Below, piece after piece: positions 5,993 through 22,739 of a stretch of 64,000 nucleotides of DNA. The first letter of the stretch is position 1; every line of letters begins with the position of its first letter. The DNA is from Candidatus Dormiibacterota bacterium (GTDB lineage: Bacteria; Chloroflexota; Dormibacteria; Aeolococcales; Aeolococcaceae): assembly GCA_003162415.1 (NCBI GenBank), contig PMOL01000013.1, positions 124,001 through 188,000 of the forward strand. Reading direction: 5' to 3'. Position numbers and translations under genes: made by a program. The notes beneath the pieces were generated by a model that was not told the origin of the DNA, did no database searches, and saw only the letters and a program-made list of their open reading frames with translations.

Positions 5993-5999
5993 GCTCCGT

Positions 6000-6013
6000 A
6001 TTATCAGGAGCTT
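6000..6013. repeat. Direct repeat copy 1 (ATTATCAGGAGCTT)
   Basis: This copy lies just upstream of the recombinase start and covers the stop codon of the nucleotidyltransferase gene. An identical 14-mer, AT-rich for this region, occurs in the same orientation at 7916-7929. Together they flank the nucleotidyltransferase and GNAT genes. It could be a core attachment site or a chance match. Confidence 0.35.
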
Positions 6014-6813: not shown

Positions 6814-6869
6814 CCTTGGTAACCCTATCCCGGACCGCGGCGCATCCAGACCGCCGCGACGCGATGCGC

Positions 6870-8091: not shown

Positions 8092-9831
8092 TTACCCAAC
8101 CGGGTTGAACACTGGGATCGCCGGAGCCGCACACCCCGGACATGCCGGGGCCACCCAGAGCGTGTCTGAGCTGGACCGCCAGACGACGTCGATGGCGCCC
8201 CCGCCGGCAAACGCCACCGAGGACGGATCCGACGACGCGGTGGCACCGAGCCCCTCCGGGCCCACCAGTCCGCTGGCGGACGTGAACAGGGACGATGCCA
8301 TCAGCCCCGACGGCTCTCGCGAGTCGACGATCACCGACCCGGGAGCGAGGTCGACGACCGACGGGTTGCCGGCGACGGTCTCGGTGCCGAGGGCCACGCT
8401 GCCGGCCCAGGTCTGACCATTGAGTGCCCCGTGCCACAGCTGACCGGCGCTGTTCCAGAAGACGTCGATGCCGGCGCCGGCGGCGCTCACTGACGGATCG
8501 GCCGTGAGCGCGGTGGACGTCAGGCGCTTAGCGCCCAACCAGCCCATCGAGGTGCCGGTATCAGCCCAGAGGTCGCCGGAGGCATCGCGCCAGAAAACCG
8601 TGTCTGAGCCCTGGCCAGCACTCGCTACCACGGGATTCCCGCCGACGGCACCGGTGTTGAGCGGCGTGGCGCCGCTCCAGCCGGAGTGGTAGCGATCGAC
8701 CCAGAGACCGCCGTCCGAGCCCTTCCAGAAGACATCGAGAAAGCCGGGCGCCGGCGACACGGCGCGCGGCTGCGAACCGAGCGGCCCGAGACCGAGCGAG
8801 ACCGGCGCGGACCAGGTCCCGGTGCCGAACCATCCCGCGGTGAACCCCGTGTACCAGAGGTTGTGGTCCTCCCCTTCCCAGAACGCGTCAATCCGGTCAG
8901 GACCTGACGAGGCGACCGATGGATCCGACGCGAGGGTCGCCCCCGTGCCCCCGGCAGCGCTGATGTCGGCGGACGCCCTCCCCCACGTCCCGTTGCGGAA
9001 GGCGAGGCTCCAGAGATGCCCGTTGGTCCCGCGCCAGAGCACGTTGATGTCACCCGACTGGTCGGAGACCGTCTGCGGGGTCCCCGCCACGTTGGCCGCC
9101 TGCGGAAGCGCGGTCGGATCCGGGAACCCGAAGTAAGGAAGCGATCGAGCCCCACCCTGGTCCAGGTCCACGTGCCCCGGGATCCCGGGCACGTTACCGG
9201 CGTCGCTGAACTGCCAGACCTGCCAGCCGGTCCCGCCCCAGTTGTTTTCCGGGACCGAGGGTTGGCTGACGAACCAGTTCGCGACCCAGAGCGGATCCAG
9301 GGTGAATGCCGCTGAGTTGATGTTCCCGCTCCACCAGGACGGCGAGCAGTAGATCGCGGGCAGCGAGCCGATCGCGGCGCTGACCGTGTTCACCACGGTG
9401 CGCAGGTTGGCGACAACCACCGACTGGGGCTCGCCGTCGGTGGTCTCGACATCGATGGTTGGAACCAGGTCTCCGTGGGTGAACCCCACCGTGCGGAGTT
9501 GGGAGATGAGCAGATCGGCCTGGGCGACCGGGCTCTGGTTCGGTTCGAAGAACAGATAGGCGCCCGGCGTCACCCCGGCCGCGGACGCGCCCCGCCAGTT
9601 GGTCCCGAACTGCCCGTCCGGAGATCCGGCTCCATCCGCCGCGCGGATGTACGCGAACGAGATCCCCGAAGCCGCCACCGAGTGCCAGGCGATCGAGGAG
9701 CCCTGGTAGGCGCTGACGTCGACCCCCTCCCGAGTCGCCGAGGCGCGGCCGTCGGCCACGCGAAGCAACCCGCCGGGCAGGGCGGCCGTGAGCACCAGGG
9801 CTGTCGCGGTAACGGCGATCCGAGACCTCAC
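8092..9831 (-). CDS. Secreted GH25-type lysozyme with C-terminal beta-propeller-like repeats
   Basis: The 579-residue protein has a signal peptide (about 1-32). A GH25 muramidase-like domain follows (about 37-235), beginning with EGVDVSAYQG and carrying the catalytic Asp-x-Glu as Asp127/Glu129 (PTIDVET). The C-terminal 330 residues hold repeats of about 45-50 residues with the pattern F-W-x-G-x-D-x-x-L-W, as in PLL/sialidase-like beta-propellers that bind glycans. It should act outside the cell on peptidoglycan, its own or that of competitors. The gene stands alone and is divergent from the DUF929 gene. Confidence 0.8.
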   Translation of the reverse strand: MRSRIAVTATALVLTAALPGGLLRVADGRASATREGVDVSAYQGSSIAWHSVAASGISFAYIRAADGAGSPDGQFGTNWRGASAAGVTPGAYLFFEPNQSPVAQADLLISQLRTVGFTHGDLVPTIDVETTDGEPQSVVVANLRTVVNTVSAAIGSLPAIYCSPSWWSGNINSAAFTLDPLWVANWFVSQPSVPENNWGGTGWQVWQFSDAGNVPGIPGHVDLDQGGARSLPYFGFPDPTALPQAANVAGTPQTVSDQSGDINVLWRGTNGHLWSLAFRNGTWGRASADISAAGGTGATLASDPSVASSGPDRIDAFWEGEDHNLWYTGFTAGWFGTGTWSAPVSLGLGPLGSQPRAVSPAPGFLDVFWKGSDGGLWVDRYHSGWSGATPLNTGAVGGNPVVASAGQGSDTVFWRDASGDLWADTGTSMGWLGAKRLTSTALTADPSVSAAGAGIDVFWNSAGQLWHGALNGQTWAGSVALGTETVAGNPSVVDLAPGSVIVDSREPSGLMASSLFTSASGLVGPEGLGATASSDPSSVAFAGGGAIDVVWRSSSDTLWVAPACPGCAAPAIPVFNPVG

Positions 9832-9993
9832 GCCACCGCCAGAGGGGAACCCACCATTGACGTGAGGATAGACACGGATGTCGGACCTGTTGGGTTCGTC
9901 ACCGTATCTTCATGTGCGCTCCCGTGGGCGTCGATCGGGGGGCCATGACCTCGGGACACCCAGTCGAAAGGTTGGTCCGCTACCCTGAACGGC

Positions 9994-10947
9994 GTGGATC
10001 AGTCGACCCCGCGCAAGCCCGCGGGCAAAAGGCCCCTGCCGGCCGGCAAAACACCTGCCAGGCCCCTGACCAAGAAGCAGCGCCGCAACCAGGCGGCGGC
10101 GAGGTCAGTCTCTCTCGAGAGCCGGAGGCCATGGCAGTCACCAACGATCGTGACCTTCTCGAGCGTTGCCATCGTGGCGGTGGTGCTCATCGTGATCGTG
10201 GTGATCAACGCGGCAGGCGGTGGGAATGCGGCGGTGAACAAGCCGGTCCCGCAGGCAATCCTGACCGCGGTCGAGAATCCAAGCCCGTCGGTGGTCACGA
10301 CCGTGGGAACGGGTGGTTACAGCGGAGAGATGGTTCGCCTCCCTGCCTCGGCGAAGCTGGTCTCGAATGGGAAGCCGATGGTCGTCTTCGTCGGAGCCGA
10401 GTACTGCCCGTATTGCGCGGCTGAGCGCTGGTCGATGGTGATGTGGCTGTCGCGCTTCGGCACCTTCAAGAACCTCTCGGAGATCCTGTCCTCATCCACC
10501 GACGTCGACCCCAACACCAATTCGTTTTCGTTCTACAAGTCGTCGTACTCAAGCCCCTACATCACCTTCAGCCCGAACGAGATCGAGGATCGGAACCAGC
10601 AGCCGCTGCAGTCGATGAGCGCCCAGGTGACCAAGATCTTCACCACCTACGACACCCCTCCGTATGCCACAGCGAGCGGCGGGTTCCCATTCCTCGACAT
10701 CGGTGGGGTGTTCAACCTGTACACGACGAGCTATGACCCTGCCATTCTGCAGAATCTGTCCTGGAGCCAGATCGCCGCAAAGCTCAGCAATGCGAGCGAT
10801 CCGGTGACCAAGGCGATCGTGGGCAACGCCAACATCCTCACCGCCGCGACCTGTATCGCCACGGGGAATCAGCCGTCGTCGGTGTGCAGTAGCAACCCCA
10901 TCCCGGTAATCGAACAAGCGTTGGCGCAGATCAAGCCCAAGGGCTGA
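9994..10947 (+). CDS. DUF929 membrane-anchored thioredoxin-like protein
   Basis: The 317-residue protein has a Lys/Arg-rich cytoplasmic N-terminus (1-48), one membrane helix (about 51-72) and an extracytoplasmic DUF929 domain with a redox motif CPYC at 138-141 in [16 protein letters not shown]. Two further cysteines lie near the C-terminus. It is probably a DsbA-like or DsbD-like thiol oxidoreductase acting outside the membrane. The GTG start has no clear Shine-Dalgarno; a TACCCT -10-like element ends 8 nt before it, which suggests a leaderless or near-leaderless mRNA. It is followed by dsbB after 36 nt. Confidence 0.82.
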
Positions 10948-10983
10948 CCAGCCCAAGGAGCTGATCGCGACTGGGAGGCGCGA

Positions 10984-11619
10984 GTGGCTGTTATCACCTC
11001 TTCTGGGGTCATCAACACCGGCTACGCGGTGCTCGCATTGGTCGCGGATGCCCTGGTCCTCCTGGCGGCAATCGCCTTCATCTACTCACGCACATCGCCC
11101 TCGGCACACGAGTGGTGGGGGCGTCTGCGCGACGGCGTCACTCCGTTCGCGCTCCAGGTTGCCTGGATCGTGGCGGTTCTGGCCACCTTTGGCAGCCTCT
11201 TCCTGCAGTTCTTCGAGCAGCTTGACCCGTGCGAGTTCTGCTGGTTTCAGCGCATCTGCATGTACCCGCTGTCGCTCCTGCTCGGCATCGCCGCATTCCG
11301 CGGCGACGTGCAGGTCGCGAAGCGGTACTTCATAGGCCTGTCGCTCGTGGGCGCCGGCCTTGCCATCTATCACTACCAGCTGGAGCACATCCCCCAGCCG
11401 ACCGTCTGCGGGAGTGCGGTGCCCTGCAATGTCGCGGTGATCAACATCTTCGGATTCATCTCTGTGCCGTTCCTGTCGATGGCCGCCTTCCTGCTCATCT
11501 CGACGCTGCTGCTGATGGCGCGCGGCCGCGACACCGATGACGACGACGAAGATCTCGAGGTGATCGAGGGCAGCGTGGAGATCGACTCCGACGACAACCA
11601 CATTCCCGCGACCGTCTGA
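10984..11619 (+). CDS. dsbB: Disulfide bond formation protein B
   Basis: The 211-residue protein has four to five membrane helices. The quinone-linked redox pair is CEFC at 83-86 (DPCEFCWFQR, a family hallmark), and a second pair is Cys142 and Cys148. DsbB passes electrons from a DsbA-like oxidase to quinone. An acidic C-terminal tail (about 182-205) follows the last helix. The GTG start is preceded by GGGAGG. Pairing with the DUF929 gene suggests that DUF929 is its thiol partner. Confidence 0.9.
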   Translation: MAVITSSGVINTGYAVLALVADALVLLAAIAFIYSRTSPSAHEWWGRLRDGVTPFALQVAWIVAVLATFGSLFLQFFEQLDPCEFCWFQRICMYPLSLLLGIAAFRGDVQVAKRYFIGLSLVGAGLAIYHYQLEHIPQPTVCGSAVPCNVAVINIFGFISVPFLSMAAFLLISTLLLMARGRDTDDDDEDLEVIEGSVEIDSDDNHIPATV

Positions 11620-11623
11620 CCGT

Positions 11624-12349
11624 TTAGACGAGTTCGCCCAGGTACTTCGGGAGCATCTGACGCCACGTCGACCAGTCGTGGTCGTACTCGGAACCCCACG
11701 GGTCGACGCGGTTCGGGATCCCCTTGCGGCCGAGGACATGCGCAAGCCGCCACGACTCGCCGATGTTCTCCCACCGCCCCTCGCCGGACGCGAGGATCGC
11801 GTGACGAGTCTGCAGGAGCGCGAGGTGTTCGCCGTTGAGGTCCGGGAGGAAATACGACGGCGTCGCGAAATAGAGGTCGTCGCCGGCGTCCTCACCCACA
11901 AATCGGGCGACGTCGTAGGTGCCGCTCATCCCCACCGCGTTGGTGATCACATCCGGATAGTGGCAGAGCAGCGACACGGCGTTGAATGCGCCGATCGACG
12001 CCCCGGCGGTGATAACGGTGATGTCTGGGCTGTCGCAGTCCATGCGAATCATGGGGATCAGCTCGTGACGGACGAACTCGATGAATCCACGGGTGATCGC
12101 CGCTCGATAGCGCGCATCGCCGTCCTCGCGAAGCATCGCCTTGCCCGAGACACTGTCGCAGGAGTAGATCTTCGCCCGACCCGCTTCGAGGTACTCCCCC
12201 ACCGAGTCCACGAGCCACATTCGCTCGATCTCCTCGGCGTCGCCCCCCGCAGTCGGGAAGACGATCACCGGCCGGCCGAAATGCCCCCAGCGCGCAACCG
12301 TGACGTCGCTCTCGACCCGGTTGGAATACCAACGCTCTCGCCTCTTCAT
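11624..12349 (-). CDS. Esterase, PF00756-like alpha/beta hydrolase
   Basis: The 241-residue protein has the nucleophile elbow GASIGAF with Ser118, and a late histidine at His224 (EYDHDW), consistent with the esterase/antigen-85/Fes fold. No signal peptide is visible, so it is probably cytoplasmic. It is the last gene of a minus-strand operon (ATP-grasp, S51-like protein, esterase, esterase), 37 nt after the preceding gene. In this context it may hydrolyse or transfer the acyl product of the ATP-grasp ligases; that is inference. Confidence 0.78.
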   Translation of the reverse strand: MKRRERWYSNRVESDVTVARWGHFGRPVIVFPTAGGDAEEIERMWLVDSVGEYLEAGRAKIYSCDSVSGKAMLREDGDARYRAAITRGFIEFVRHELIPMIRMDCDSPDITVITAGASIGAFNAVSLLCHYPDVITNAVGMSGTYDVARFVGEDAGDDLYFATPSYFLPDLNGEHLALLQTRHAILASGEGRWENIGESWRLAHVLGRKGIPNRVDPWGSEYDHDWSTWRQMLPKYLGELV

Positions 12350-12386
12350 GGCCGCAAAGTCTCGCGCATCGGTGCGGAGTGGCGCA

Positions 12387-13547
12387 TCACCCCGGATAAA
12401 TCAGGCGCGCTTCACCCGGAAAGAGCCAGCCCAAACCGTCGAGCAGCCGGTCGCGCCAGTTGATCCAGTTGTGGCCGTCGAGGGCCTCCATCACCCGGAG
12501 CTCGTCGCACATTCGCTCCAGCACTTCGGCCATCGCCCGATCCGGCACTGCAAGAGGCTCGAAGGCCCCGTAGGTCAGAAAGATGCGATCGGTGACCTTC
12601 TTGGGATGGGCGCGCACCGAGTTGACGAAACGGACCACCGGTTCGAACACGTCGCCGAATGTGCCAGACGGGGTTGCCTCCGTGAATCGCAACGACGGCG
12701 ATTCCAGCAGCAACGCTCCATAGAAGCCCGGCGCGCGGACGGCCGCGGAGAGCGCGGCGACGCCGCCGAAGCTCGCACCCATGAGCACCCTTCCCCGAGG
12801 ATCGCCCCGAAGCCGGAGCGAGCCCTCGATGTGCGGAACCAGCTCGCCGGTCAGGAACCGGCTGTGCGCCGCGCTCGCCCCGTACTCGCGCAGACGGTCG
12901 CCCGGGTGCGTGAAGGCAACGACGCAGTCGGCCATCAGCCGGCGGTACATCAGGTTGTCGAGCACGGTCGCCATTGACGAGTACTGGAGGAAATCGCCGC
13001 CGTCGTGCACCACGAGGAGTGGCATCCGGCGATCGCGGCGCATGCGCGACGGGATGTACAGGGTCACCTGCGCATCGCGCCGCAGCGCTCGGCTCGGAAG
13101 GCGCAGATCGACGAGCTCGCCCGACACCACGGTTGGATCCGGGTACGCCCAATCCGGTGTGAGATACCCGTCCGCCTCGAGCACGGACTGCGATCCGATC
13201 GGTTCGCCCACGACCCGCGGGTTGAGGGGGTCGTTCATGCTCTCGGTGCTCTCGCCGCGCCTCACCAGGATCCGGTACTGGATGCGGGCCCCTCGCGGCA
13301 GCTCGACACTTGCGTACCAGAGGTCGGTCCCCTTGAGACGGCGGAGCGGCAGCGGAATCGGGATCTCGGGCATTCGATGATCGACGGCGACCCCGTCGGC
13401 GTCACCGCGCCACAGAAACGTGCAGATGGGTCCCTCGACGAGCGGTACCCGCTGTTCGCGCAGGAGCTGATCGATCGCCTCAGGGGAACTGCCCTCGCTG
13501 CGCAGGCGGGTGAGTGCCCGCGGACCGCGGGCTGGGCCGGGGCTCAC
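12387..13547 (-). CDS. Enterochelin-esterase-like alpha/beta hydrolase
   Basis: The 386-residue protein has an N-terminal beta-rich region (about 35-135, similar in layout to the E-set domain of Fes) and a C-terminal hydrolase domain. The nucleophile elbow is MGASFGG with Ser259 and the catalytic histidine is probably His359 (DGHNW). The GTG start follows the stop of the S51-like gene after 2 nt, so the genes are translationally coupled. Family members hydrolyse siderophore esters or related compounds; the substrate here is unknown. Confidence 0.8.
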   Translation of the reverse strand: MSPGPARGPRALTRLRSEGSSPEAIDQLLREQRVPLVEGPICTFLWRGDADGVAVDHRMPEIPIPLPLRRLKGTDLWYASVELPRGARIQYRILVRRGESTESMNDPLNPRVVGEPIGSQSVLEADGYLTPDWAYPDPTVVSGELVDLRLPSRALRRDAQVTLYIPSRMRRDRRMPLLVVHDGGDFLQYSSMATVLDNLMYRRLMADCVVAFTHPGDRLREYGASAAHSRFLTGELVPHIEGSLRLRGDPRGRVLMGASFGGVAALSAAVRAPGFYGALLLESPSLRFTEATPSGTFGDVFEPVVRFVNSVRAHPKKVTDRIFLTYGAFEPLAVPDRAMAEVLERMCDELRVMEALDGHNWINWRDRLLDGLGWLFPGEARLIYPG

Positions 13548-13549
13548 GA

Positions 13550-14470
13550 TCAGGCGGCTTGCGCCCCCCGCAGCACCTGGCCATCCTCCGCGACCACGCC
13601 GACGGAGGTGAGATCGGCGAGGCGTCCCGAGCGCAGCTCAAGGCGATCACCTGGATCGAGCAGCACGCAGACGCTCGGCGCGCAGCGGCGTGCCAGCACG
13701 GCGAGTCGATCCGGGTCATGTGCGTGCAGGCGCGATGTGGCGGCGGGAAGCGCGACCATCCCGCGAGCAACGCCGATGCCGATGTCGTAGATCTCATCCG
13801 GCCGGCCCGCCGGGTCGTCATCGTCGATGACCACGATCCGCTCCGAGACGGCCACGCAGCCGGATGACCACGCGAGCAGCGGTCGCTCCTCGATCAACGC
13901 CGCGAGGTGGCCGAGGTGCAGGCAGTCGTTGAGCACGCCGACGTGCCCTCCGGCGATGGCGATCGCCGCGCACCCGGCGACGATCGCTGCCACCTCCTCG
14001 CGATGCCGGGTTATGGCCGGACGCTCGTGGGGTGGGTTCTGCGCATAAAAATGCTCATACGCCGCGGCGATGGACGACGTATGCGTCTCGTCGAGCATCC
14101 GCACTGCGTCGATCGCCGCGTCGAGCTCTGAACCTGGTCGGCGTTGCGCCTCGGCAAAGCGCCTTCGGATCACCTCCAGGCCGGCGAGGGCGTGGCGCAG
14201 TCGGAGCAGGTAGAGCTCGCGAAGCTCATCGATCTGGGTGCGCAACAGCCGTTCGGCGTCGGCATAGCCGGGGTCACTTTCGAGGATGTCGAGGCGGCGG
14301 CCGTAGAGGTTGAGATTTCGGGAACCGCCTCCAAGCCTCCTGTCCACCTCGGCGTCGTTGCGCTCACCCTCCTCCCATCCGGCTGTCACCAGGGCGACCG
14401 GACCGTCGACACCGAAAGCCGCGATCTCCGCTGCCAGGTCGACCCCATCGAGTGGCCCGAGCAGGGTCAC
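13550..14470 (-). CDS. Peptidase S51 / class-I amidotransferase-like protein
   Basis: The 306-residue protein has a Rossmann-like C-terminal half with the order seen in the S51 (peptidase E, cyanophycinase) family: AIAGGHVGVL at about 172-180 followed by LLAWSSGCVAVSE at about 198-210, where cyanophycinases have GGN and a G-x-S-A-G elbow. Ser203 or Cys205 would be the nucleophile. A helical Arg/Glu-rich insert (about 70-160) sits between. The GTG start is 5 nt downstream of the ATP-grasp stop. S51 enzymes cleave iso- or beta-linked peptides, so a role in processing or recycling the ligase product is plausible. The family assignment is moderate because the elbow is atypical. Confidence 0.6.
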   Translation of the reverse strand: MTLLGPLDGVDLAAEIAAFGVDGPVALVTAGWEEGERNDAEVDRRLGGGSRNLNLYGRRLDILESDPGYADAERLLRTQIDELRELYLLRLRHALAGLEVIRRRFAEAQRRPGSELDAAIDAVRMLDETHTSSIAAAYEHFYAQNPPHERPAITRHREEVAAIVAGCAAIAIAGGHVGVLNDCLHLGHLAALIEERPLLAWSSGCVAVSERIVVIDDDDPAGRPDEIYDIGIGVARGMVALPAATSRLHAHDPDRLAVLARRCAPSVCVLLDPGDRLELRSGRLADLTSVGVVAEDGQVLRGAQAA

Positions 14471-14475
14471 CTGCC

Positions 14476-15699
14476 TCACGAGGCGTGCACGCGAACCGTC
14501 TCGCCGGCAACGTTGAGCATCTGGTGGACGGTGTCGAAGTCCGGGTGCGCCATCCGGATCCACGCGTTGGCCATGTACCCGGCCTCGACCGCCTGGGTCG
14601 CCGTGCCGCTGGGCGGAACGTAGCTGTCGAGGATCCACTCGCCGAACTCGCGCTGCACCTCCTCGAGGCCGTCGTAGTGGGTGATCACCCCGTCGCGATC
14701 CGGGCGGAGCGCGACGATCCCAGCGGCACGGCGCCGCGACAGCGGGCGCTCGACGCGGTGATGCACGATCGCGTTCGCCCATTCCCGATAGATGTCGATG
14801 TCGTTGCCCGCCGAGTAGAGATCCCAGGCGCGCACGCCCGGCGGACGGCACCCTATCTCGCTGAAGCGGAGGCCCTTGGGTCCGAAGAACCACTCCATGT
14901 GGGTCGCCGATGTCCCGATACCGAGCGCCTCGATAGCGCGCAGACCGAGCTGTCGCACCTCAGCGTAGTCGGGCGCGGTGTCAACCTGGTTGGTCGAGAT
15001 GAACTGCGGGCTGATCCAGCGCTCGCGCATCGCCTCGAGGACGTTCGGGTAGTAGTGCGAGATGAAGTCATAGACGGGATGGCCGTCGATGCTGATCGTG
15101 TCGTAGAAGCCCTCATGACCTTCTACGAACTCCTCGACGGCGATGTCCGTGGCGCCGGACTGGCCAAGCTCTGTGAGCGCGCGGTCGAGCTCCGCGTCGG
15201 AGTCGACGCGCACCGTTCCCGATGCCCCGGCCGCGGCACGGGGCTTGAGGATGGTCGGGTAGCCGACTCGGGCAACAAAGTCACGGACCTCCGCCGCACT
15301 CGTGGCTCCGGTCGATTGCGCGGTCTGGATTCCGACCGCGCGCAGCGCGTCTTTCATCGCGGGCTTGTCCCGGCAGAGATATGCGGTGTGCACGGTCGTT
15401 CCGGGAATGCCGCAGGCCTCCCTGGCGTAGGCGGCCGCCATGGTGTGCGACTCGATCGTCGATTCGAGCGCGTCGACCCATACCTTGCTCTGCGCGAAGC
15501 GCACCGCCTCGATGAGCGCGCCCACGTCGGTGACGTTCGGAATCTGCTCGTAATGGAGCATCCAGCCCCGGAGGTCGGCGTCAAGCCAGTCGGCGGGCCG
15601 CTCACCGATACCGATCACGTCTGCCCCGGCTTCGGCGAGGCCACGAACGAACTCGCGCTGATTCGGGGGGAATGCCGGCTCCACGAAGATGACGTTCAC
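14476..15699 (-). CDS. ATP-grasp ligase 1 of the cluster
   Basis: The 407-residue protein has a preATP-grasp region (about 1-115), then CRDKPAMKDAL (about 125-135), the ATP-binding lysine in ILKPRAAAGASGT, an EEFVEG strand, and the metal-binding end segment HMEWFFGPKGLRFSEIGCRPPG. This is the D-Ala-D-Ala-ligase/carbamoyl-phosphate-synthetase-like ATP-grasp layout, which forms an acyl phosphate and joins it to an amine. It is clearly paralogous to the two following ATP-grasps. The GTG start has AGGA 8 nt upstream. It leads a four-gene minus-strand operon. Confidence 0.85.
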   Translation of the reverse strand: MNVIFVEPAFPPNQREFVRGLAEAGADVIGIGERPADWLDADLRGWMLHYEQIPNVTDVGALIEAVRFAQSKVWVDALESTIESHTMAAAYAREACGIPGTTVHTAYLCRDKPAMKDALRAVGIQTAQSTGATSAAEVRDFVARVGYPTILKPRAAAGASGTVRVDSDAELDRALTELGQSGATDIAVEEFVEGHEGFYDTISIDGHPVYDFISHYYPNVLEAMRERWISPQFISTNQVDTAPDYAEVRQLGLRAIEALGIGTSATHMEWFFGPKGLRFSEIGCRPPGVRAWDLYSAGNDIDIYREWANAIVHHRVERPLSRRRAAGIVALRPDRDGVITHYDGLEEVQREFGEWILDSYVPPSGTATQAVEAGYMANAWIRMAHPDFDTVHQMLNVAGETVRVHAS

Positions 15700-15764
15700 G
15701 CGCAGATCCTACCCGCTGGGTCACAACCCGTCCCTCGCCGCCTGACTACACTCGCCAAAGCTCA
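15700..15764. promoter_or_regulatory. Divergent promoter region between ATP-grasp genes
   Basis: These 65 nt separate two divergent paralogous ATP-grasp genes. A TACACT -10-like element at 15747-15752 ends 12 nt before the plus-strand ATG, implying a very short leader. No convincing -35 or operator is seen. Shared control of both arms is likely from the layout. Confidence 0.4.
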
Positions 15765-16994
15765 ATGGCGAACGCTGTCTTCGTTGCCCCCTTTCTGCTC
15801 CCGGCCACGGTGCGGTTCATCGCCGCGGCCGCGTCGCTTCCCGGCGTCCGCCTCGGTCTGATCAGCCAGGACCCGGAGGACCGCCTCCCGGACGATGTCC
15901 GCTCCGCTCTCGCGGGGCATTACCGCGTCGCCGACGGCACCGACGCGCAGCAGATTGCCGACGCAACCCGGGTGATGGCGAGCCACCTCAGCAGCGTCGA
16001 CTGCCTGCTCGGCATGCTCGAACAACTCCAGGTTCCCCTCGGCGAGGTTCGCGACGCGCTCGGTATCCCGGGGATGGGCGCCGAGGTCGCCCGCAACTTT
16101 CGCGACAAGGCGCGCATGAAGACCGTGTTCGAAGCGAGTGGCGTGCCCTGCGCGGGCCACCGCCTGGTGCGTTCGGCCGCCGAGGCGCGGAACGCGGCGG
16201 CCGGTCTCGGATACCCCCTGGTCGCGAAACCTCCCGCGGGCGCGGGGGCCCGCTCCACGTTCCGGCTCGACAACGACGGTCAGCTCGAAGCGTGGCTGCA
16301 GGCCGATCCACCTGGTGACGCCAACCCCGCTTTGCTCGAACAGATGGTGGTCGGCACCGAGCACAGCTTCGATAGCGTGCTGTTGAACGGGGAGCTGGTC
16401 TGGCATTCCATCTCGCGCTACCTGCCCACCCCGCTCGAGGTGCTCGAGAACCCGTGGATACAGTGGGCGGTCCTCCTTCCGCGTGATATCTCCGGTCCGG
16501 AATTCGATCCCATCCGCAGCGACGGAGTGCGCGGCCTGCGCGCGCTCGGTCTGCGCACAGGACTCACCCACATGGAGTGGTTCCGAAGAGCGAACGGCGA
16601 GATCGCGATCAGCGAGGTCGCCGCACGCCCCCCGGGCGCGCAGTTCACGTCGCTGCTCTCCTACGCACACGACATCGACATGTACGCGGCATGGGCTCGC
16701 CTCGAGATCTTCGACGAGTTCTCCCCTCCTGAACGCCGCTACGCGGTCGGCGCCGCCTATCTGCGCGGCCAGGGCAGCGGCGCGGTGGTCGGCATCCACG
16801 GGCTCGACATCCTCCAGCGGGAGCTCGGCGACCTGGTGGTCGAGGTGGAGCTCCCGCGCGAAGGCCAGCACTCCTCCGGCACCTACGAGGGTGAGGGCCA
16901 CGTGATCCTGCGGCACCCGGAGACCTCGGTGGTCGAAGCTGGACTGCGCCGCGTGGTCGAGGTCGCCCGCGTCGAGCTCGGAGGGACGTCATGA
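15765..16994 (+). CDS. ATP-grasp ligase 2 of the cluster
   Basis: The 409-residue protein is paralogous to its two neighbours. It shows RDKARMKTVF, the ATP lysine in LVAKPPAGAGARSTF, EQMVVGTE and the metal-binding HMEWFRRANGEIAISEVAARPPG. The C-terminal domain (about 325-409) contains GAAYLRGQGSGAVVGIHGLD, a segment shared with ATP-grasps 1 and 3. It starts at ATG 15765 with no clear Shine-Dalgarno and overlaps ATP-grasp 3 by 4 nt (ATGA). The substrate is unknown. Confidence 0.85.
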   Translation: MANAVFVAPFLLPATVRFIAAAASLPGVRLGLISQDPEDRLPDDVRSALAGHYRVADGTDAQQIADATRVMASHLSSVDCLLGMLEQLQVPLGEVRDALGIPGMGAEVARNFRDKARMKTVFEASGVPCAGHRLVRSAAEARNAAAGLGYPLVAKPPAGAGARSTFRLDNDGQLEAWLQADPPGDANPALLEQMVVGTEHSFDSVLLNGELVWHSISRYLPTPLEVLENPWIQWAVLLPRDISGPEFDPIRSDGVRGLRALGLRTGLTHMEWFRRANGEIAISEVAARPPGAQFTSLLSYAHDIDMYAAWARLEIFDEFSPPERRYAVGAAYLRGQGSGAVVGIHGLDILQRELGDLVVEVELPREGQHSSGTYEGEGHVILRHPETSVVEAGLRRVVEVARVELGGTS

Positions 16995-18214
16995 CCGCGA
17001 CCGTGCTGATGATCTCGCCCGGCTACCCGGCCGAGATGCCTTTCTTCACGCGCGGCCTTGCGCGCGCCGGAGCGCAGGTGATCGGCGCGGGCGACCAGCA
17101 TGTTTCGGGGCTTCCGGACATGGCCCGCGACCACCTCGCCGCGTACTGGCAGATCCCGTCGTTCGCCCACGAGGACGCGATCGTCCACGATGTCGTACAA
17201 CGCGCGGCGGGCATCCACATCGACCACGTCGCGTCGTTGTGGGAGCCGACCATGGTGCTTGCCGCCCGCATTCGTGAGGCGCTCGGGATCCAAGGCATGA
17301 CCGTCGAGCAGACCATCCCCTTTCGCGACAAGGAACGAATGAAGCAGGTGCTCGACGCCGCGGGAATTCGCACGCCGCATCACTACCGATGCCGGACGGC
17401 GATCGAGGTCCGTGAGGCGGCCGAGCGCATCGGGTATCCGATCATCGTCAAGCCGATTGCAGGTGCGGGGTCGGCGGACACCTATCGTGTCGACGGTGCG
17501 GTTGCGCTCGACAACGTCATCCCGAAGCTCGTGTGGGTTGACGAGGTGAGCGTCGAGGAATTCGTCGAGGCATCGGAGTTCACCTATGACACCATCTGCG
17601 CAGGCGGTGAGGTGCTCTTCGATAACGTCGCCTGGTACCGGCCGCGTCCCTTGATCGCGCGCCAGCTGGAGTGGATCAGCCCGGTCACTATGGTGGTGCG
17701 AGACATCGACGCGCCCGAGCTCTCGAGCGGTCGCGCCATGGGCCGAGACGTGTTGCGAGCGCTGGGTTTTCGCGATGGGTTCACGCACATGGAGTGGTAC
17801 CGGCGCGACAGCGGCGAGGTGGTGTTCGGAGAGATTGGCGCGCGCCCACCAGGCGCCCGCACCGTCGACGTGATGAATTACGCGAACGACGTCGATCTCT
17901 TCCACCAGTGGGCCGAGGCGCTCATCCACGGTCGTTTCTCCGTGCCTGTCGAGCGCCGCTACAACGCGGCGTCCATTTTCAAGCGAGCGCAGGGCCAGGG
18001 CAAGATCACGCACATCGACGGTCTCTCACGCCTGTTATCGGATTACGACGAGTGGGTGTGCACGATCGACCTTCTTCCCATCGGAGCGCCGCGGCGCGAC
18101 TGGTTGATGACGCTCATCTCCGACGGGATGGTCATCGTCAGACACCCCAGCCTGGATTCATGCATCGAGATCGCGGATCGTTTCGCGACCGAGTTGCAGC
18201 TCTACGCGTACTGA
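16991..18214 (+). CDS. ATP-grasp ligase 3 of the cluster
   Basis: The 407-residue protein has the same architecture as its neighbours: an N-terminal VLMISPGYPAEMPFFTRGLA, then RDKERMKQVL, IIVKPIAGAGSADTY, VEEFVEASEFTYDTI and HMEWYRRDSGEVVFGEIGARPPG. The N-terminal domains of the three differ more than the catalytic core, as expected if each accepts a different carboxylate. Translation is coupled to ATP-grasp 2 through ATGA. No gene follows on the same strand. Confidence 0.85.
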   Translation: MTATVLMISPGYPAEMPFFTRGLARAGAQVIGAGDQHVSGLPDMARDHLAAYWQIPSFAHEDAIVHDVVQRAAGIHIDHVASLWEPTMVLAARIREALGIQGMTVEQTIPFRDKERMKQVLDAAGIRTPHHYRCRTAIEVREAAERIGYPIIVKPIAGAGSADTYRVDGAVALDNVIPKLVWVDEVSVEEFVEASEFTYDTICAGGEVLFDNVAWYRPRPLIARQLEWISPVTMVVRDIDAPELSSGRAMGRDVLRALGFRDGFTHMEWYRRDSGEVVFGEIGARPPGARTVDVMNYANDVDLFHQWAEALIHGRFSVPVERRYNAASIFKRAQGQGKITHIDGLSRLLSDYDEWVCTIDLLPIGAPRRDWLMTLISDGMVIVRHPSLDSCIEIADRFATELQLYAY

Positions 18215-18284
18215 CGCTGTTCGCCGAGCGCTCCAGGGTTGTCGACGCGCATCAGCATGGTTCCCCCACCGCTTGGCACCGGCG

Positions 18285-18893
18285 TCAGTTCGCGTGCGTG
18301 GTGCGACCTGATGGGGAACGTACACGGCGCCGCCGCATCGAAACGGGCGGGACCGGGCGCGAGCCCATTGCCTCTGCGTTCGCACGGATCTTCGCAAGAG
18401 TCTGAATGACCTGCTCACGTTCAGCCTCGCTGACTCCTGCCATCACGTCTATCGAGGTTGCGTGCACTTGCGCGAGCATGAGGTCGACGAGCCTCCGCGC
18501 CTCGTCCGTGATGTTGACGAGAAGCTTTCTCCGGTCGTCCGGATGCGGTTCGCGGCGCACGAATCTGCGGCGCTCCAACGTATCGAGGAGTGACGTGATG
18601 CTCCCGCTCGTCAGCAGCAGACGCTCACCGATCACCTTCGGCGGCAGCGGCTCGCCGGCGCCTTCGATGACTGCGAGTGCCTGCCAGCCGCTCAAGGAGA
18701 GATTGCCGATCGCCGACTTGTGGCGTCGATCCAACTCGGCGAGACTGACGGAGGACGTGCGAGCGAGGTTCAACAAAACCTCGCTCGCAGACCTGCTCGC
18801 ACCCGGAAACTCCACCTCGAAATGCGCCGCCTGGCGCAGCGGTTCCGGGCTGGGCTGCGCGTTCTTAGGCCGGCTGCGCGGCGAGGATCTCAC
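18285..18893 (-). CDS. MarR-family transcriptional regulator
   Basis: The protein has up to 202 residues. The winged helix-turn-helix covers about residues 64-140: LSLSGWQALAVIEGAGEPL, then the recognition helix in LTSGSITSLLDTLERRRFV and the wing RREPHPDDRRKLLV, all typical of MarR. The N-terminal 40 residues are not conserved in this family and the GTG at 18893 is uncertain; it overlaps the upstream gene by 29 nt. Both genes follow a promoter holding two palindromic sites, so autorepression is likely. Confidence 0.85.
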   Translation of the reverse strand: MRSSPRSRPKNAQPSPEPLRQAAHFEVEFPGASRSASEVLLNLARTSSVSLAELDRRHKSAIGNLSLSGWQALAVIEGAGEPLPPKVIGERLLLTSGSITSLLDTLERRRFVRREPHPDDRRKLLVNITDEARRLVDLMLAQVHATSIDVMAGVSEAEREQVIQTLAKIRANAEAMGSRPVPPVSMRRRRVRSPSGRTTHAN

Positions 18894-19152
18894 CGATCAC
18901 CACTGTGGGCTCGCTGATCACTCCGATATTGTCCATGGTGGTCTTCAGCGAGGGATCAGAGACGAAGCCCAGAACGGCCTCGCGTGACGGGGCATCCAGG
19001 ACGACCAGGATGTTGTTCGGGTCATCGGCGCCGCGGTACACCTCGGCGTTCGTGAGGCCGTGCTGCTCCCTGACGGCCGCATGGGCGTCGAAGCCAGGAC
19101 GCCAGACGTCGTAGTCGCGAACCTTGTGCGCCACGGAGACTTTGGTTGCCAT
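18865..19152 (-). CDS. Small alpha/beta-barrel-like protein of unknown function
   Basis: The protein has 95 residues and a strong Shine-Dalgarno (GGAGG). The sequence (VAHKVRDYDVWRPGFDAH near the N-terminus, PNNILVVLDAPS in the middle) has the layout of dimeric alpha+beta-barrel proteins of the ABM-monooxygenase type, small homodimers that are often degradative or stress proteins. No catalytic residue can be named. It is the first gene of a two-gene unit with marR. The protein at 62180 has the same general pattern. Confidence 0.65.
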   Translation of the reverse strand: MATKVSVAHKVRDYDVWRPGFDAHAAVREQHGLTNAEVYRGADDPNNILVVLDAPSREAVLGFVSDPSLKTTMDNIGVISEPTVVIGEILAAQPA

Positions 19153-19170
19153 GATGGTCCTCCAGGGGGC

Positions 19171-19186
19171 ATGCTCGAAAGAGCAT
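19171..19186. other. Short hairpin in the marR-unit leader
   Basis: ATGCTC-GAAA-GAGCAT forms a 6-bp stem with a GAAA tetraloop. It lies between the operators and the ribosome-binding site of the gene starting at 19152, so it would be in the 5' leader. It may stabilise the mRNA; no other role is visible. Confidence 0.4.
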
Positions 19187-19189
19187 TTC

Positions 19190-19203
19190 ACTTGATGCCA
19201 AGC
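19190..19203. promoter_or_regulatory. Candidate MarR operator, secondary site
   Basis: ACTTGATGCCAAGC matches the perfect palindrome at 19205 in 11 of 14 positions and lies one helical turn and a half away (15-nt centre spacing). It covers the -10/start region of the minus-strand promoter. Confidence 0.6.
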
Positions 19204-19229
19204 TACTTGATATCAAGTGGCATTGTCAA
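19200..19229 (-). promoter_or_regulatory. Promoter of the small-protein/marR unit
   Basis: On the minus strand a TTGACA -35 (19224-19229) is followed after 18 nt by a TAGCTT -10-like element (19200-19205). The primary operator occupies most of the spacer. The start codon of the first gene is at 19152. Confidence 0.6.
19205..19218. promoter_or_regulatory. Candidate MarR operator, primary site
   Basis: ACTTGATATCAAGT is a perfect 14-bp palindrome of the type bound by MarR dimers. It sits between the -35 and -10 of the minus-strand promoter, so binding should block RNA polymerase. Confidence 0.75.
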
Positions 19230-19298
19230 GCCCCGAGTTTCGTGCATTCAGTCGCCAAGGCCGTCAGTCGCAGCAGAAGGACCCGCCGCTCGCGACGC

Positions 19299-20492
19299 TC
19301 AGTCCGCGGCGGCGACGACCTGCTTGCCCACCGTCTCCAGCACCGCAGAACGCGACGCCGGCATGTCCGCGTGCAGCTCCGCAATCAGGCTGTCCACGAC
19401 ATCGACGAGCGAACCCCCGGCTTCGACGACCTCGCGCTGCCGGATGCAACTCGAGCCCCGGTCCATGATGTCGATGGCCCCGCGCAGCTCGGTGGTGCAT
19501 CCGAGCCGTGTCGCGACCGGTGTCAGGTCCTCGACGAGCTCGCGAATCGCCTGACGCAGCGGCACGGTCCTGCCGCCCTCGTCGACGATGATCGATGCCT
19601 CGAGGCCATGCCGCGCAGCCCGCCACTTGTTCTCCCGGACCAACCAGGCGCGCGGCGTCGGCAGCGTGTAGCCACGATCGATCATCCCGTCGAACTGATG
19701 CACCAGGCACTGGCTCAGTGCCGCGACGACGCCGACCTCGCGCAGCGTCGGGAGACCGTCGCACACGCGAATCTCAACGGTACCGAAGGTCGGATGCGGG
19801 CGGATGTCCCACCACACCTCGCGGATCGTCTTGATGGTCTGCGAGGAGATGAGCGTGTCCATCAGCTGCTCGAACTGCGGCCAGCCACTCAGCAGCCACG
19901 GCGGTCCGGCGGTCGGAAGGCTCTCGAACACCTTGCTCCGCCAGGACGCCATCCCGGTGTCATGGCCCATCCAGTAGGGGCTCGAAGCCGAGAGCGCGAG
20001 GAAGTGCGGGATGTATGCGGAGAGCGCGTTCACCATGGCGATCGCCTTCTCACCGCTGCGGACCCCGACGTGCACATGGATGCCGAAGATCTGCATCTGC
20101 CTCGCGGGCCATTGCATGTCGCTGACGAGTCGCAGGTAGCGCGGGTCGGGGCTGATCTCCTGCAGCGCCGGGTCACTGAACGGATGCGTGCCCGAGCACG
20201 CCAGTTCGAGGTTGCGTGGCTCGGTGTGCTCGCGAAGCTCGGCCATCGTCGCGGCAAGATCCGCCTTCACTTCCGCGGCGGTTTCACAGATGCCAGTGAT
20301 GATCTCCACCGTCGACTGGAGCAGCTCCTTCTTGGCCTTGGGATGACCGAGCTCGCCGTGGGGTGCATTCATCTCGCCGAGGATCTCGTGGGCACCGCTC
20401 ACCAGCTCGCGGGTGTCGCGGTTGATGAGCTCCAGCTCCATCTCCACGCCGACCGTTGGCCTGGGGCTGGAGACGAATTCGATGTGCGTCAT
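19299..20492 (-). CDS. Carboxylate-amine ligase, YbdK/GCS2 type
   Basis: The 397-residue protein belongs to the glutamate-cysteine ligase 2 fold: VGVEMELELI near the N-terminus (metal/ATP-binding acidic residues), IFGIHVHVGV near 137-146, and a TFGTVEIRVCDG segment near 238. Members join glutamate gamma-carboxylates, or related carboxylates, to amines using ATP. It is the last gene of an operon with proC and ATP-grasp 4, 12 nt downstream of the latter. The partner amine is unknown; E. coli YbdK has weak glutamate-cysteine ligase activity. Confidence 0.88.
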   Translation of the reverse strand: MTHIEFVSSPRPTVGVEMELELINRDTRELVSGAHEILGEMNAPHGELGHPKAKKELLQSTVEIITGICETAAEVKADLAATMAELREHTEPRNLELACSGTHPFSDPALQEISPDPRYLRLVSDMQWPARQMQIFGIHVHVGVRSGEKAIAMVNALSAYIPHFLALSASSPYWMGHDTGMASWRSKVFESLPTAGPPWLLSGWPQFEQLMDTLISSQTIKTIREVWWDIRPHPTFGTVEIRVCDGLPTLREVGVVAALSQCLVHQFDGMIDRGYTLPTPRAWLVRENKWRAARHGLEASIIVDEGGRTVPLRQAIRELVEDLTPVATRLGCTTELRGAIDIMDRGSSCIRQREVVEAGGSLVDVVDSLIAELHADMPASRSAVLETVGKQVVAAAD

Positions 20493-20504
20493 GGGTGATC
20501 GACT

Positions 20505-21749
20505 CTACGCCGCGGCTGCGCGCTGGTCATGGGCCCACGCGCCGAGGAGGCCTCGGAAATGGGCGATGAACTGTTCGTGCTCGTGCGCCGGGAACGTGTT
20601 CCGGACCGTCTCCACGATGATCCTGTCGAAATCCGAGCTCTCCACCCATGCAACCGACAGCTCGTCGACGTGGGCGAGATGGCGTTCGCAGAACTCGCGA
20701 TACCGGTCCACATCGAGCTGCTTGTCGGCGAGCTTGCGGTACCCCGCGAGCTTTTCGTCGTAGCTCAGGTCCGCGCGGTCGGCGATGGCGAAGTACTCCT
20801 CGGTGTTGAGGTCGACGGTCTGGAGACGGCCGGTGACGCAGCAGAACACCGCCCACTTCAGCAGGCTGCGAATCGCCCACGGAAAGTAATAGTGGAGGCT
20901 CGTCAGCGCCAGGTCAGGGGTCGCGTTGGCGTAGTCGATCGGATACACGTCGTCGCCGCGGATCAGGGTCTCGCAGCTGTTGAGCTCCCATCGAAAGAAG
21001 GCGTTGACGGTGCGCAGGATGGTGAGCACCTCATCGCCCGCGCGCGGCGTCAGGAAGTTGTGGTCGACGGAATACCGGTCGTGCATCGGCTTCTCGGGAT
21101 GGAAGTTGAGCACGATCGACTCCGCGCCGATCCCGAGGCTGCGGGCGAAGGCGTCGAAACCGTCCACCGACGCCTGCAGATGCATGAGGCGTTGCTCGGA
21201 TTCGTCATACGCGCGATAGAGCGCCTCGTTGTTCTCGATGCGTGAAACGCCGACCCATGCGCCACCATCGAACGGCTTCATGTACAAGGGCATTCCGACA
21301 GCTTTGGCCACCGCCTCGAGGTCGAAATACCGCAGGTAGCGCTGCGCGGTGCCGGCAAAACGAGGATTGTCCGGTGGCGTCTTGTTGGGCAGCATCCACG
21401 TCTCCGGGACCTTGAGACCGAGCCGGATCATCGCGCAGTAGGCCGCGTGCTTCTCCATCGCCTGGAACGTGAACGGGTTGTTGAGCAGATGGACGCGGTC
21501 CATGAGCACCACCTTCTTCAACCACTCGCGGGGCATCGGGTACCACCAGCCTAGGCGATCGATCACCAGCGAATGCCGGGGCTTCATGCGCAGGTCGAAG
21601 GGCTCGATGGTGACCCGCTCGGTGGCGAAGGTATGCGTCTCGCCACCCTCGTGCACGGCCAGGTCGGCCCGTCCCAGCAACGCCTCGAACGCGGCCGGCC
21701 AGTCCTCCTCGACGCCGAGCAACATGCCGATGAGGTGGGTTCTTGCCAT
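20505..21749 (-). CDS. ATP-grasp-like ligase 4
   Basis: The 414-residue protein has ATP-grasp-like features: a substrate-domain start (RTHLIGMLLGVEEDWP), a central GMPLYMKPFDGGAWVGVSRI holding the ATP-binding lysine, and a late acidic cluster DVYPIDYANATPD. It differs clearly from ATP-grasps 1-3, with different length of spacing and no EIG-x-RPPG ending, and belongs to another subfamily. It lies between proC and the YbdK-type ligase on one strand. A joint role with YbdK in forming amide bonds is inferred. Confidence 0.72.
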   Translation of the reverse strand: MARTHLIGMLLGVEEDWPAAFEALLGRADLAVHEGGETHTFATERVTIEPFDLRMKPRHSLVIDRLGWWYPMPREWLKKVVLMDRVHLLNNPFTFQAMEKHAAYCAMIRLGLKVPETWMLPNKTPPDNPRFAGTAQRYLRYFDLEAVAKAVGMPLYMKPFDGGAWVGVSRIENNEALYRAYDESEQRLMHLQASVDGFDAFARSLGIGAESIVLNFHPEKPMHDRYSVDHNFLTPRAGDEVLTILRTVNAFFRWELNSCETLIRGDDVYPIDYANATPDLALTSLHYYFPWAIRSLLKWAVFCCVTGRLQTVDLNTEEYFAIADRADLSYDEKLAGYRKLADKQLDVDRYREFCERHLAHVDELSVAWVESSDFDRIIVETVRNTFPAHEHEQFIAHFRGLLGAWAHDQRAAAA

Positions 21750-21784
21750 CGTGGATGGAGTATTGCAGGCCCTGCGGGGGCGGG

Positions 21785-22678
21785 TCAGGTCCTCGAGGAG
21801 CGGCCCGAACGCCGGTGGGAACTCGTCGCGGGGCCGGCTTCGCGCCCCTCGAGGGTGGCCTCGATCCGGAGCGTCCGCTCGAACGCCGCCCACACCGCGT
21901 CGCTCACCACCGTGCGGAGGCCTCCGCGTTCCAGTTGATAGAGGGCCTCGGCCGATGTGCCACCCGGCGAGGTCACCATGTCGCGCAGCTCGGCAACATG
22001 CTTGCCACTCTGGAGCGCGAATTCCGCGCTCCCCTGCATGGTGTCGAGGACGAGCTCCCGCGCCACGTGGCGAGGAAATCCGAGGTGGACTGCAGCATCA
22101 GTGAGCGCTTCGATGAACAGGAAGATGTAGGTGGGGCCTGTGCCGCTCACGGCGGTGGCCATGGCCACCTGCCGCTCATCGTGCACCTCGAATTCGCGCC
22201 CGAGTGCGGTCAGGATGGTTCGGGTTCGAGCCTTGCCGGTATCGTCGACGCTCTCGGTCGCGTACCAGACGGTGACCCCGCGGCCGATCTGGGCGGGAGT
22301 GTTGGGCATGCAGCGCACCACCGCCGGATGATCCAGTCCCTCACCCAGGGCTGTTGTGGTTGCCCCGGCGATGATGCTGATCACCAGCTGGGCCGGTCGC
22401 AACGACCCGCGCAGCTCGGCCATCACGCCGCCGAGCATCTGCGGCTTGACCCCGAGCAGGATGATGTCGGTGTCGGCGGTGGCCTCGAGGTTCGACTCGG
22501 CCACGCTGACGTGGTAGGTGGCGACCAGCGCCTCACGGCGAGCCGCCCGCGGATGCGTGCAGACGATGTTGCGCGCGGGTACGAGATCGCGCTCGAGCAG
22601 CCCGGCCAGCATCGCCTCGGCCATCACGCCGGTGCCGACGATGCCGAGGCGTGTTCCGCGAAGGCTTTCCTCGAGCAT
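21785..22678 (-). CDS. proC: Pyrroline-5-carboxylate reductase
   Basis: The 297-residue protein has the Rossmann motif GIVGTGVMAEAML near the N-terminus, GVKPQML, a MPNTPAQIGRG segment, and the substrate loop SGTGPTYIFLFIEAL with TSPGGTSAEALYQLE near the C-terminus, all ProC hallmarks. It reduces P5C to proline with NAD(P)H. ATG 22678 is chosen over a GTG at 22690. It is the first gene of the operon with ATP-grasp 4 and the YbdK-type ligase, so it may supply proline for that pathway as well as general metabolism. Confidence 0.92.
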   Translation of the reverse strand: MLEESLRGTRLGIVGTGVMAEAMLAGLLERDLVPARNIVCTHPRAARREALVATYHVSVAESNLEATADTDIILLGVKPQMLGGVMAELRGSLRPAQLVISIIAGATTTALGEGLDHPAVVRCMPNTPAQIGRGVTVWYATESVDDTGKARTRTILTALGREFEVHDERQVAMATAVSGTGPTYIFLFIEALTDAAVHLGFPRHVARELVLDTMQGSAEFALQSGKHVAELRDMVTSPGGTSAEALYQLERGGLRTVVSDAVWAAFERTLRIEATLEGREAGPATSSHRRSGRSSRT

Positions 22679-22739
22679 GTGACGGCACACCTTACCGCCA
22701 ACGATTCACCGGCCGGTTCAGCGGGCCATGCCATGATCG

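What the first reader, a model, noticed from the sequence alone, without database searches (positions are those of the whole stretch)
11624..22678. A twelve-gene amidoligase cluster with four ATP-grasps, a YbdK-type ligase, two esterases and an S51-like protein
The region combines five ATP-dependent ligases of two folds with two Fes-type hydrolases, an S51-like protein and proC. No ribosomal precursor, NRPS or cell-wall gene is present, so it does not look like peptidoglycan or cyanophycin synthesis. Gene neighbourhoods uniting ATP-grasp and GCS2-like amidoligases with hydrolases have been predicted from comparative genomics to make novel peptide-like metabolites (Iyer, Aravind and colleagues). 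The product here is unknown, making this the best candidate for an undescribed pathway.
Basis: partly seen in the sequence, partly recalled or inferred. Interest (0 to 1): 0.82.

Follow-up and report, generated by a model that had tools for sequence, protein, structure and literature searches.

The report
Conserved multi-ligase peptide-like metabolite gene cluster
A soil bacterium of the Dormibacterota carries a conserved set of genes, also found in some actinobacteria, that probably builds a small peptide-like compound without the ribosome; what the compound is and does is unknown.

Summary
At 11624-22690 there are 11 genes (not 12), including four ATP-grasp ligases, a YbdK-type GCS2 ligase, two PF00756 esterases and an S51-fold protein. 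The window comes from a Dormibacterota MAG. Comparison across genomes redraws the unit. The conserved core is ag1–S51–est2–est1, the pair ag2–ag3, and ag4. It keeps its order in 14 genomes of one Dormibacterota family, and recurs in full or in part in a few Actinomycetota, two of them named strains. Ag1, ag2 and ag3 are three ancient paralogue lineages that form one clade; their nearest solved relatives are L-amino-acid (dipeptide) ligases. The S51 assignment, invisible to Pfam, is supported by structure (pLDDT 88.7; the top 19 PDB matches are PepE or cyanophycinase), but the window's orthologue has lost the putative catalytic His that actinobacterial copies keep. Two genes (MarR and a small protein) are local, proC is the genome's only proC and is housekeeping, and gcs is a Dormibacterota-specific recruit. 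The best reading is stepwise ATP-dependent synthesis of a small non-ribosomal peptide or peptide conjugate. Product and substrates are undetermined. One unresolved lead is linkage to alpha-glucan genes in some actinobacteria. It is a new variant of a predicted kind.

The parts
11624..12349 (-). est1: alpha/beta-hydrolase (PF00756), 241 aa; putative nucleophile Ser118 and His224 invariant
   Evidence: Pfam 3.5e-06; invariant S118/H224 over 12 homologues; conserved in cluster
12387..13547 (-). est2: Fes-like esterase with N-terminal Enterochelin_N (E-set) domain, 386 aa; Ser259/His359 invariant
   Evidence: Pfam PF00756 1.2e-19, PF11806 8.7e-07; invariants over 9 homologues
13550..14470 (-). S51/PepE-fold protein with an extra helical insertion (residues about 67-144); keeps the Ser of AWSSG, lacks the His of LPHA found in actinobacterial orthologues
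   Evidence: AlphaFold2 pLDDT 88.7, pTM 0.87; Foldseek PepE/cyanophycinase E 8.1e-05, prob 1.00; residue comparison
14476..15699 (-). ag1: ATP-grasp, L-amino-acid-ligase type, 407 aa
   Evidence: Pfam ATP-grasp 4.9e-08; PDB relatives RizA, BL00235, BacD; tree
15765..16994 (+). ag2: ATP-grasp paralogue, divergent from ag1 over 65 bp
16991..18214 (+). ag3: ATP-grasp paralogue, overlaps ag2 by 4 bases
18285..18893 (-). MarR-family regulator, present only in the window's copy of the locus; not part of the conserved unit
   Evidence: Pfam 3.7e-13; only a 38-residue match in one relative
18865..19149 (-). small protein, weak DUF3764 match (below cut-off); local gene, not part of the conserved unit
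19299..20492 (-). gcs: YbdK/GCS2 carboxylate-amine ligase, linked to the cluster in Dormibacterota only
   Evidence: PF04107 2.5e-61; NCBIfam NF010043 572 bits, cut-off 409; next to proC without ag4 between in G007
20505..21749 (-). ag4: ATP-grasp (D-Ala-D-Ala-ligase/RimK-like) with a C-terminal extension of about 110 aa; the most widespread member of the system
21785..22690 (-). proC (pyrroline-5-carboxylate reductase), the genome's only copy; neighbour, membership not supported
   Evidence: P5CR_dimer 1.2e-35; one copy per genome in relatives, also in those without the cluster

Best explanation
The cluster encodes stepwise, ATP-dependent, ribosome- and NRPS-independent synthesis of a small peptide or peptide-conjugated metabolite. 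Inferred steps: the three L-amino-acid-ligase-type ATP-grasps (ag1, ag2, ag3) activate carboxylates as acyl phosphates and form amide bonds one residue at a time, each with its own substrates. ag4 makes a further bond that est1 and est2 process by hydrolysis or acyl transfer; est1 with ag4 is the most widespread pairing. The S51-fold protein trims or recognises the product in actinobacteria and has probably lost peptidase activity in Dormibacterota. In Dormibacterota a gcs ligase was added and may supply a gamma-glutamyl or similar starter. Shown here: families, conserved key residues, order, orthology and modularity. Inferred: the chemistry, its sequence and the product.
For: Order conserved in 14 Dormibacterota genomes; recurs in Actinomycetota, in full without gcs (G517, G618) or nearly so (G729 without ag2; G432 with ag4 on another contig). 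ag1, ag2 and ag3 form one clade against the other ATP-grasps sampled (100/100). Candidate metal and ATP-binding residues (K112, K152, E189, E269, E281, R285 in ag1 numbering) are invariant in all three. Nearest solved relatives are dipeptide ligases: RizA 4e-33, BL00235 4.9e-26, BacD 6.7e-18. Short gaps and overlaps suggest the operons ag1-S51-est2-est1, ag2-ag3 and ag4-gcs. Ser/His of both esterases invariant. No room for a precursor gene between conserved genes.
Against: No substrate, product or expression evidence exists. No exporter, no dedicated precursor enzyme and no regulator is conserved with the unit. The most widespread form (est2-est1-ag4 in actinobacteria) has no L-amino-acid-ligase-type gene, so the ancestral function may not be peptide synthesis. 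alpha-Glucan genes are interleaved in one genome. ATP-grasp folds also make esters, thioesters and carboxylations.
Confidence: 0.5

Rival explanations
1. An alpha-glucan-linked system: ag4 attaches an acyl or aminoacyl group to a sugar or glucan hydroxyl and est1/est2 remove or transfer it; ag1-3 build the group that is attached.
For: In G618 glgC and glgA lie between est2 and est1, and glgB plus a GH57/DUF3536 gene follow ag4. In 25 of 80 named loci phosphoglucomutase lies within about 8 kb of ag4, 19 of these also with glgB, several with treS and maltokinase. est2 has an E-set N-terminal domain.
Against: Most of the 25 loci are from related families (Intrasporangiaceae, Dermatophilaceae and kin) and share ancestry. 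In the evenly drawn sample only G527 and G618 show close linkage, plus a glgC about 9 kb away in G484. No glucan gene was found in the window or the Dormibacterota loci. The E-set match to CBM48/GlgB_N is not significant.
Confidence: 0.13
2. A low-molecular-weight thiol or glutathione-like pathway: gcs makes gamma-glutamylcysteine, ATP-grasps extend it, esterases act like S-formyl-thiol hydrolases.
For: Window gcs is an NF010043 'glutamate--cysteine ligase'; GshB is an ATP-grasp and S-formylglutathione hydrolase is a PF00756 member (own knowledge).
Against: gcs is absent from every actinobacterial version of the cluster; matches to the NF010043 model in those genomes lie elsewhere and below its cut-off. 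The name glutamate--cysteine ligase is not evidence of cysteine use.
Confidence: 0.08
3. Turnover of a nitrogen-rich peptide polymer akin to cyanophycin, with S51 as the cyanophycinase-like hydrolase.
For: S51 structure matches cyanophycinase and PepE; ATP-grasp ligases present.
Against: No CphA: matches to cyanophycin synthetase models are 25-31 bits against cut-offs of 850-877. The window's S51 lacks the His.
Confidence: 0.08
4. A peptide-tagging or protein-modification system that adds and removes residues on a protein.
For: Ligases plus hydrolases in one unit; RimK-like ATP-grasps modify proteins (own knowledge).
Against: No tag or target gene and no proteasome gene in the cluster; ag1-3 resemble free amino-acid ligases.
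Confidence: 0.06

Closest known systems
L-amino-acid ligases of the ATP-grasp superfamily (RizA 4wd3, BL00235 3vot, BacD 3vmm)
   Same: Same superfamily, best PDB sequence matches of ag1-3, similar length
   Different: Three co-clustered paralogues forming a separate clade; no bacilysin or rhizocticin genes nearby; substrates unknown
Amidoligase gene neighbourhoods predicted by Iyer, Abhiman, Burroughs and Aravind 2009 (from memory; paper not held)
   Same: Combination of ATP-grasp and GCS2-like ligases with hydrolases
   Different: Whether this exact ag1-4/S51/est set was listed could not be checked; no circularly permuted ATP-grasp, alpha-helical domain or NTN hydrolase here
est1-ag4(short)-CP_ATPgrasp_2-gcs cassette in other genomes of the window's GTDB phylum (found here)
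   Same: est1, an ag4 homologue and a YbdK ligase in one neighbourhood
   Different: Short ag4 without the C-terminal extension, a circularly permuted ATP-grasp in place of ag1-3 and S51, and a different YbdK subfamily (NF010039)
est2-est1-ag4 triad of Actinomycetota (found here)
   Same: Long ag4 (about 55-67% identity) with two PF00756 esterases
   Different: No ag1-3, S51 or gcs; its est1 lies outside the clade of the window-type est1
Peptidase family S51 (PepE, cyanophycinase)
   Same: Fold, GG motif, nucleophile motif S-A/S-G
   Different: About 80-residue helical insertion, below Pfam detection, His missing in Dormibacterota

Membership tests
ATP-grasp L-amino-acid ligase (ag1-3) | Sequence relation to characterised L-amino-acid ligases | tested here: met
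   RizA 4e-33, BL00235 4.9e-26, BacD 6.7e-18
ATP-grasp L-amino-acid ligase (ag1-3) | Conserved Lys and acidic residues for ATP and metal | tested here: met
   K112, K152, E269, E281, R285 invariant in all three paralogues; not mapped onto a structure
ATP-grasp L-amino-acid ligase (ag1-3) | Dipeptide-forming activity | not testable with these tools
   needs an assay
Peptidase S51 | S51 fold | tested here: met
   Foldseek: top 19 hits all PepE/cyanophycinase family, prob 0.98-1.00; profile-profile probability 74%
Peptidase S51 | Nucleophile Ser in an S-A-G type elbow | tested here: met
   AWSSG or AWSAG in all 18 aligned sequences
Peptidase S51 | Catalytic His | tested here: not met
   LPHA in 6 of 6 actinobacterial orthologues, replaced in all Dormibacterota sequences; assignment by alignment only. 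I therefore call it S51-fold, not a peptidase
YbdK/GCS2 carboxylate-amine ligase (gcs) | Curated model above cut-off | tested here: met
   NF010043 572 bits vs 409 and TIGR02050 318 vs 176
YbdK/GCS2 carboxylate-amine ligase (gcs) | Glu + Cys as substrates | not testable with these tools
   the model's name only
Cyanophycin synthesis | CphA with ATP-grasp and Mur-ligase domains | tested here: not met
   TIGR02068 at 25-31 bits vs cut-off 850; no Mur-ligase domain among the Pfam hits
Graspetide RiPP | Precursor peptide gene next to the ATP-grasp | tested here: not met
   Largest gap between conserved genes of the cluster in L014 is 66 bases; small ORFs outside the cluster were not searched
CP-ATP-grasp/alpha-helical-domain tagging system | Circularly permuted ATP-grasp in the cluster | tested here: not met
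   No CP_ATPgrasp match among the cluster proteins; the genome's only PF14403 match is on contig C13
Enterochelin esterase (Fes) | NF007758 equivalog cut-off | tested here: not met
   est2 85 bits vs 222; est1 15 bits
Amidoligase neighbourhood of Iyer et al. 2009 | ATP-grasp plus GCS2-like ligases linked to hydrolases in conserved order | tested here: met
   the definition itself is from memory because the paper is not held
Known anti-phage defence protein | PADLOC model match | tested here: not met
   no match for 8 proteins

The most novel reading that the evidence does not exclude
A new natural-product class: a short peptide built by three dedicated dipeptide-ligase paralogues, joined by ag4 to a sugar or alpha-glucan through a bond that paired esterases reverse. 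It would be a peptide-glucan conjugate made by a modular system shared by Dormibacterota and Actinomycetota.
Probability: 0.08. Interest if true: 0.85.

Novelty: new variant of a known kind. Interest (0 to 1): 0.52.

Why it matters
Eight searches of a library of open-access papers found no description of this set. It names a conserved multi-ligase pathway in an uncultivated group and gives sequenced actinobacteria in which it could be tested: Segeticoccus rhizosphaerae and Ornithinimicrobium sp. INDO-MA30-4 (which has frameshifts) carry the ag1-S51-esterase module, and Solirubrobacter and Knoellia carry the ag4-esterase triad. The S51 protein with a lost His is a natural test of what that protein does.

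Tried and rejected
proC as a pathway gene: it is single copy, also present in relatives without the cluster, and lies beside the M50-protease gene in several of them, although in genus g6 it sits directly after est1. gcs as core: absent from actinobacterial versions, in a different subfamily from the other YbdK cassette, and found beside proC without ag4 between in G007, where the contig ends just beyond gcs. Anti-phage defence: no PADLOC match. Graspetide and cyanophycin: see membership test. Plasmid-borne copies: no match. The first S51 model from 11 close sequences was poor (pLDDT 66.9) and its PDB search gave no significant hit; adding actinobacterial orthologues solved it. Sigma-70 promoter scan: nothing above chance. 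My first S51 comparison set held wrong-frame sequences and was rebuilt by motif, which may favour the motif match.

Full report
Identity. The window is G000:C20:124001-188000 of a 3.69 Mb draft genome. The nearest named records to its ag4 are Candidatus Dormibacterota MAGs, so the source is very probably a Dormibacterota genome.

The observation. Between 11624 and 22690 there are 11 genes: est1, est2, S51, ag1, ag2, ag3, marR, a 94-aa gene, gcs, ag4 and proC. Pfam and NCBIfam confirm two PF00756 esterases (est2 with an Enterochelin_N domain), three ATP-grasps (ag1-3), a GCS2/YbdK ligase and MarR; proC was confirmed separately. ag4 is nearly invisible to Pfam (D-Ala ligase, 15 bits), but a family profile hits D-Ala-D-Ala ligase at 1.5e-08. 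The S51-like protein has no match in Pfam, NCBIfam, PHROGs or PDB sequences.

Conservation in the family. ag1 orthologues at 70% identity or more occur in 14 genomes, all in the window's own family. tblastn of 18 window genes on 14 fetched loci shows the order ag4-gcs, then ag3-ag2 divergent from ag1-S51-est2-est1, wherever contigs allow. MarR and the 94-aa gene are only in the window's copy. One genus (G015) has ag4-gcs-ag1-est2 without S51 between ag1 and est2, on a 3.5 kb contig. Genera g2, g3, g5, g7, g8 and g11-g14 gave no ag1 orthologue. S51 was found in 5 of 400 genomes of the phylum, all in this family.

Conservation outside. A scan of GTDB contigs with ag4 returned 80 loci, mostly Actinomycetota (Solirubrobacter, Knoellia, Actinoplanes, Nakamurella, Intrasporangium and others) at 50-75% identity. 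There ag4 usually sits in an est2-est1-ag4 triad. In an evenly drawn sample of 396 Actinomycetota, ag4 relatives occur in 28 genomes, nearly all long forms, and est1 adjoins ag4 in 18 of 20 fetched loci. S51 occurs in 5 of 396, counting the probe genome G432. Neighbourhoods: G517 has ag4-ag3-ag2 divergent from ag1-S51-est2-est1; G618 has all these genes; G729 lacks ag2; G432 (Nitriliruptorales) has ag3-ag2 and ag1-S51-est2-est1 with ag4 on another contig; Segeticoccus, G527 and Ornithinimicrobium INDO-MA30-4 have ag1-S51-est2(-est1) with ag4 elsewhere, the last with frameshifts; an Egibacteraceae MAG has ag2, ag3, ag4 and a fragment of ag1. In other genomes of the window's phylum a short ag4 sits with est1, a circularly permuted ATP-grasp and a YbdK ligase of another subfamily.

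Which genes belong. proC is single copy in every relative that has one, including genomes without the cluster, and lies beside the M50-protease gene in g2, g12 and g13. In G007 (g2) proC is followed directly by gcs, without ag4 between; the contig ends about 450 bases beyond gcs, so loss of the rest cannot be told from earlier recruitment of gcs. The actinobacterial clusters have neither gene. The core is therefore ag1, S51, est2, est1 and ag4, usually with ag2 and ag3.

Evolution. A tree of 37 sequences puts ag1-, ag2- and ag3-type sequences in one clade against the other sampled ATP-grasps (100/100). ag1 and ag3 are each well supported; ag2 sequences branch near the base and are not resolved as a clade. 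Sampling of outgroups was limited. The est1 of the full cluster forms a clade across both phyla (100/99), apart from the est1 of the triad and of the other cassette, so the unit has moved between phyla or is ancient and patchily lost.

Activity signs. Candidate ATP and metal residues are invariant in ag1-3. est1 Ser118/His224 and est2 Ser259/His359 are invariant in broad sets. The S51 model built with actinobacterial orthologues is confident (pLDDT 88.7, pTM 0.87); its top 19 PDB matches are PepE and cyanophycinase structures, with low TM-scores that fit an extra helical segment at residues 67-144. All 18 aligned sequences have AWS(S/A)G; all six actinobacterial sequences have LPHA at the position I align with the S51 His, and no Dormibacterota sequence has it. 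The window's protein may thus be catalytically dead or altered; this rests on alignment.

Function. ag1-3 are closest to dipeptide ligases. Three such paralogues kept side by side suggest three distinct bond-forming steps. With esterases, an S51-fold protein and no precursor gene, NRPS or Mur ligase, a small ribosome-independent peptide or peptide conjugate is the best reading (0.5). The widespread est2-est1-ag4 triad shows that ag4 and the esterases have a function without ag1-3; a reversible acyl or aminoacyl linkage is one possibility.

An unresolved lead. In G618 glgC and glgA lie between est2 and est1, and glgB with a GH57 gene follows ag4. In 25 of 80 named loci phosphoglucomutase lies within about 8 kb of ag4, 19 with glgB, but these are mostly related families, and in the even sample only two genomes show close linkage. 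I give it 0.13.

Novelty. No paper in the held library was found that describes the set. The 2009 amidoligase survey is not held, so the class is treated as predicted, and this as a new variant within it.

Noticed in passing
L174 (G618): 5748-19748: Amidoligase cluster interleaved with glgC, glgA, glgB and a GH57/DUF3536 gene, suggesting a tie to alpha-glucan metabolism.
   Followed up: partly
L058, L064, L067 and similar loci: A second conserved cassette in the wider phylum: est1, short ag4, a circularly permuted ATP-grasp (CP_ATPgrasp_2-like, below cut-off) and a YbdK ligase of NF010039 type.
   Followed up: partly
window 18865-19149 and 62180-62464: Two small proteins of 94 aa that look alike by eye; not compared by a tool.
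   Followed up: no
window 4943-6301: Phage-type integrase/recombinase gene (PF00589) about 5 kb from the cluster; could be a chromosomal Xer recombinase.
   Followed up: no
window 9994-11619: DUF929 thioredoxin-like gene followed by dsbB, next to est1 in genus g1 only.
   Followed up: partly
L156 (Ornithinimicrobium sp. INDO-MA30-4): ag1, S51 and est2 of this complete genome are split by apparent frameshifts, as are its ag4 and gcs; sequencing errors are likely.
   Followed up: no
L085:5252-5482: A 77-aa fragment of ag1 (73% identity) beside intact ag2-ag3-ag4 in an Egibacteraceae MAG: a deletion remnant or an assembly joint.
   Followed up: no
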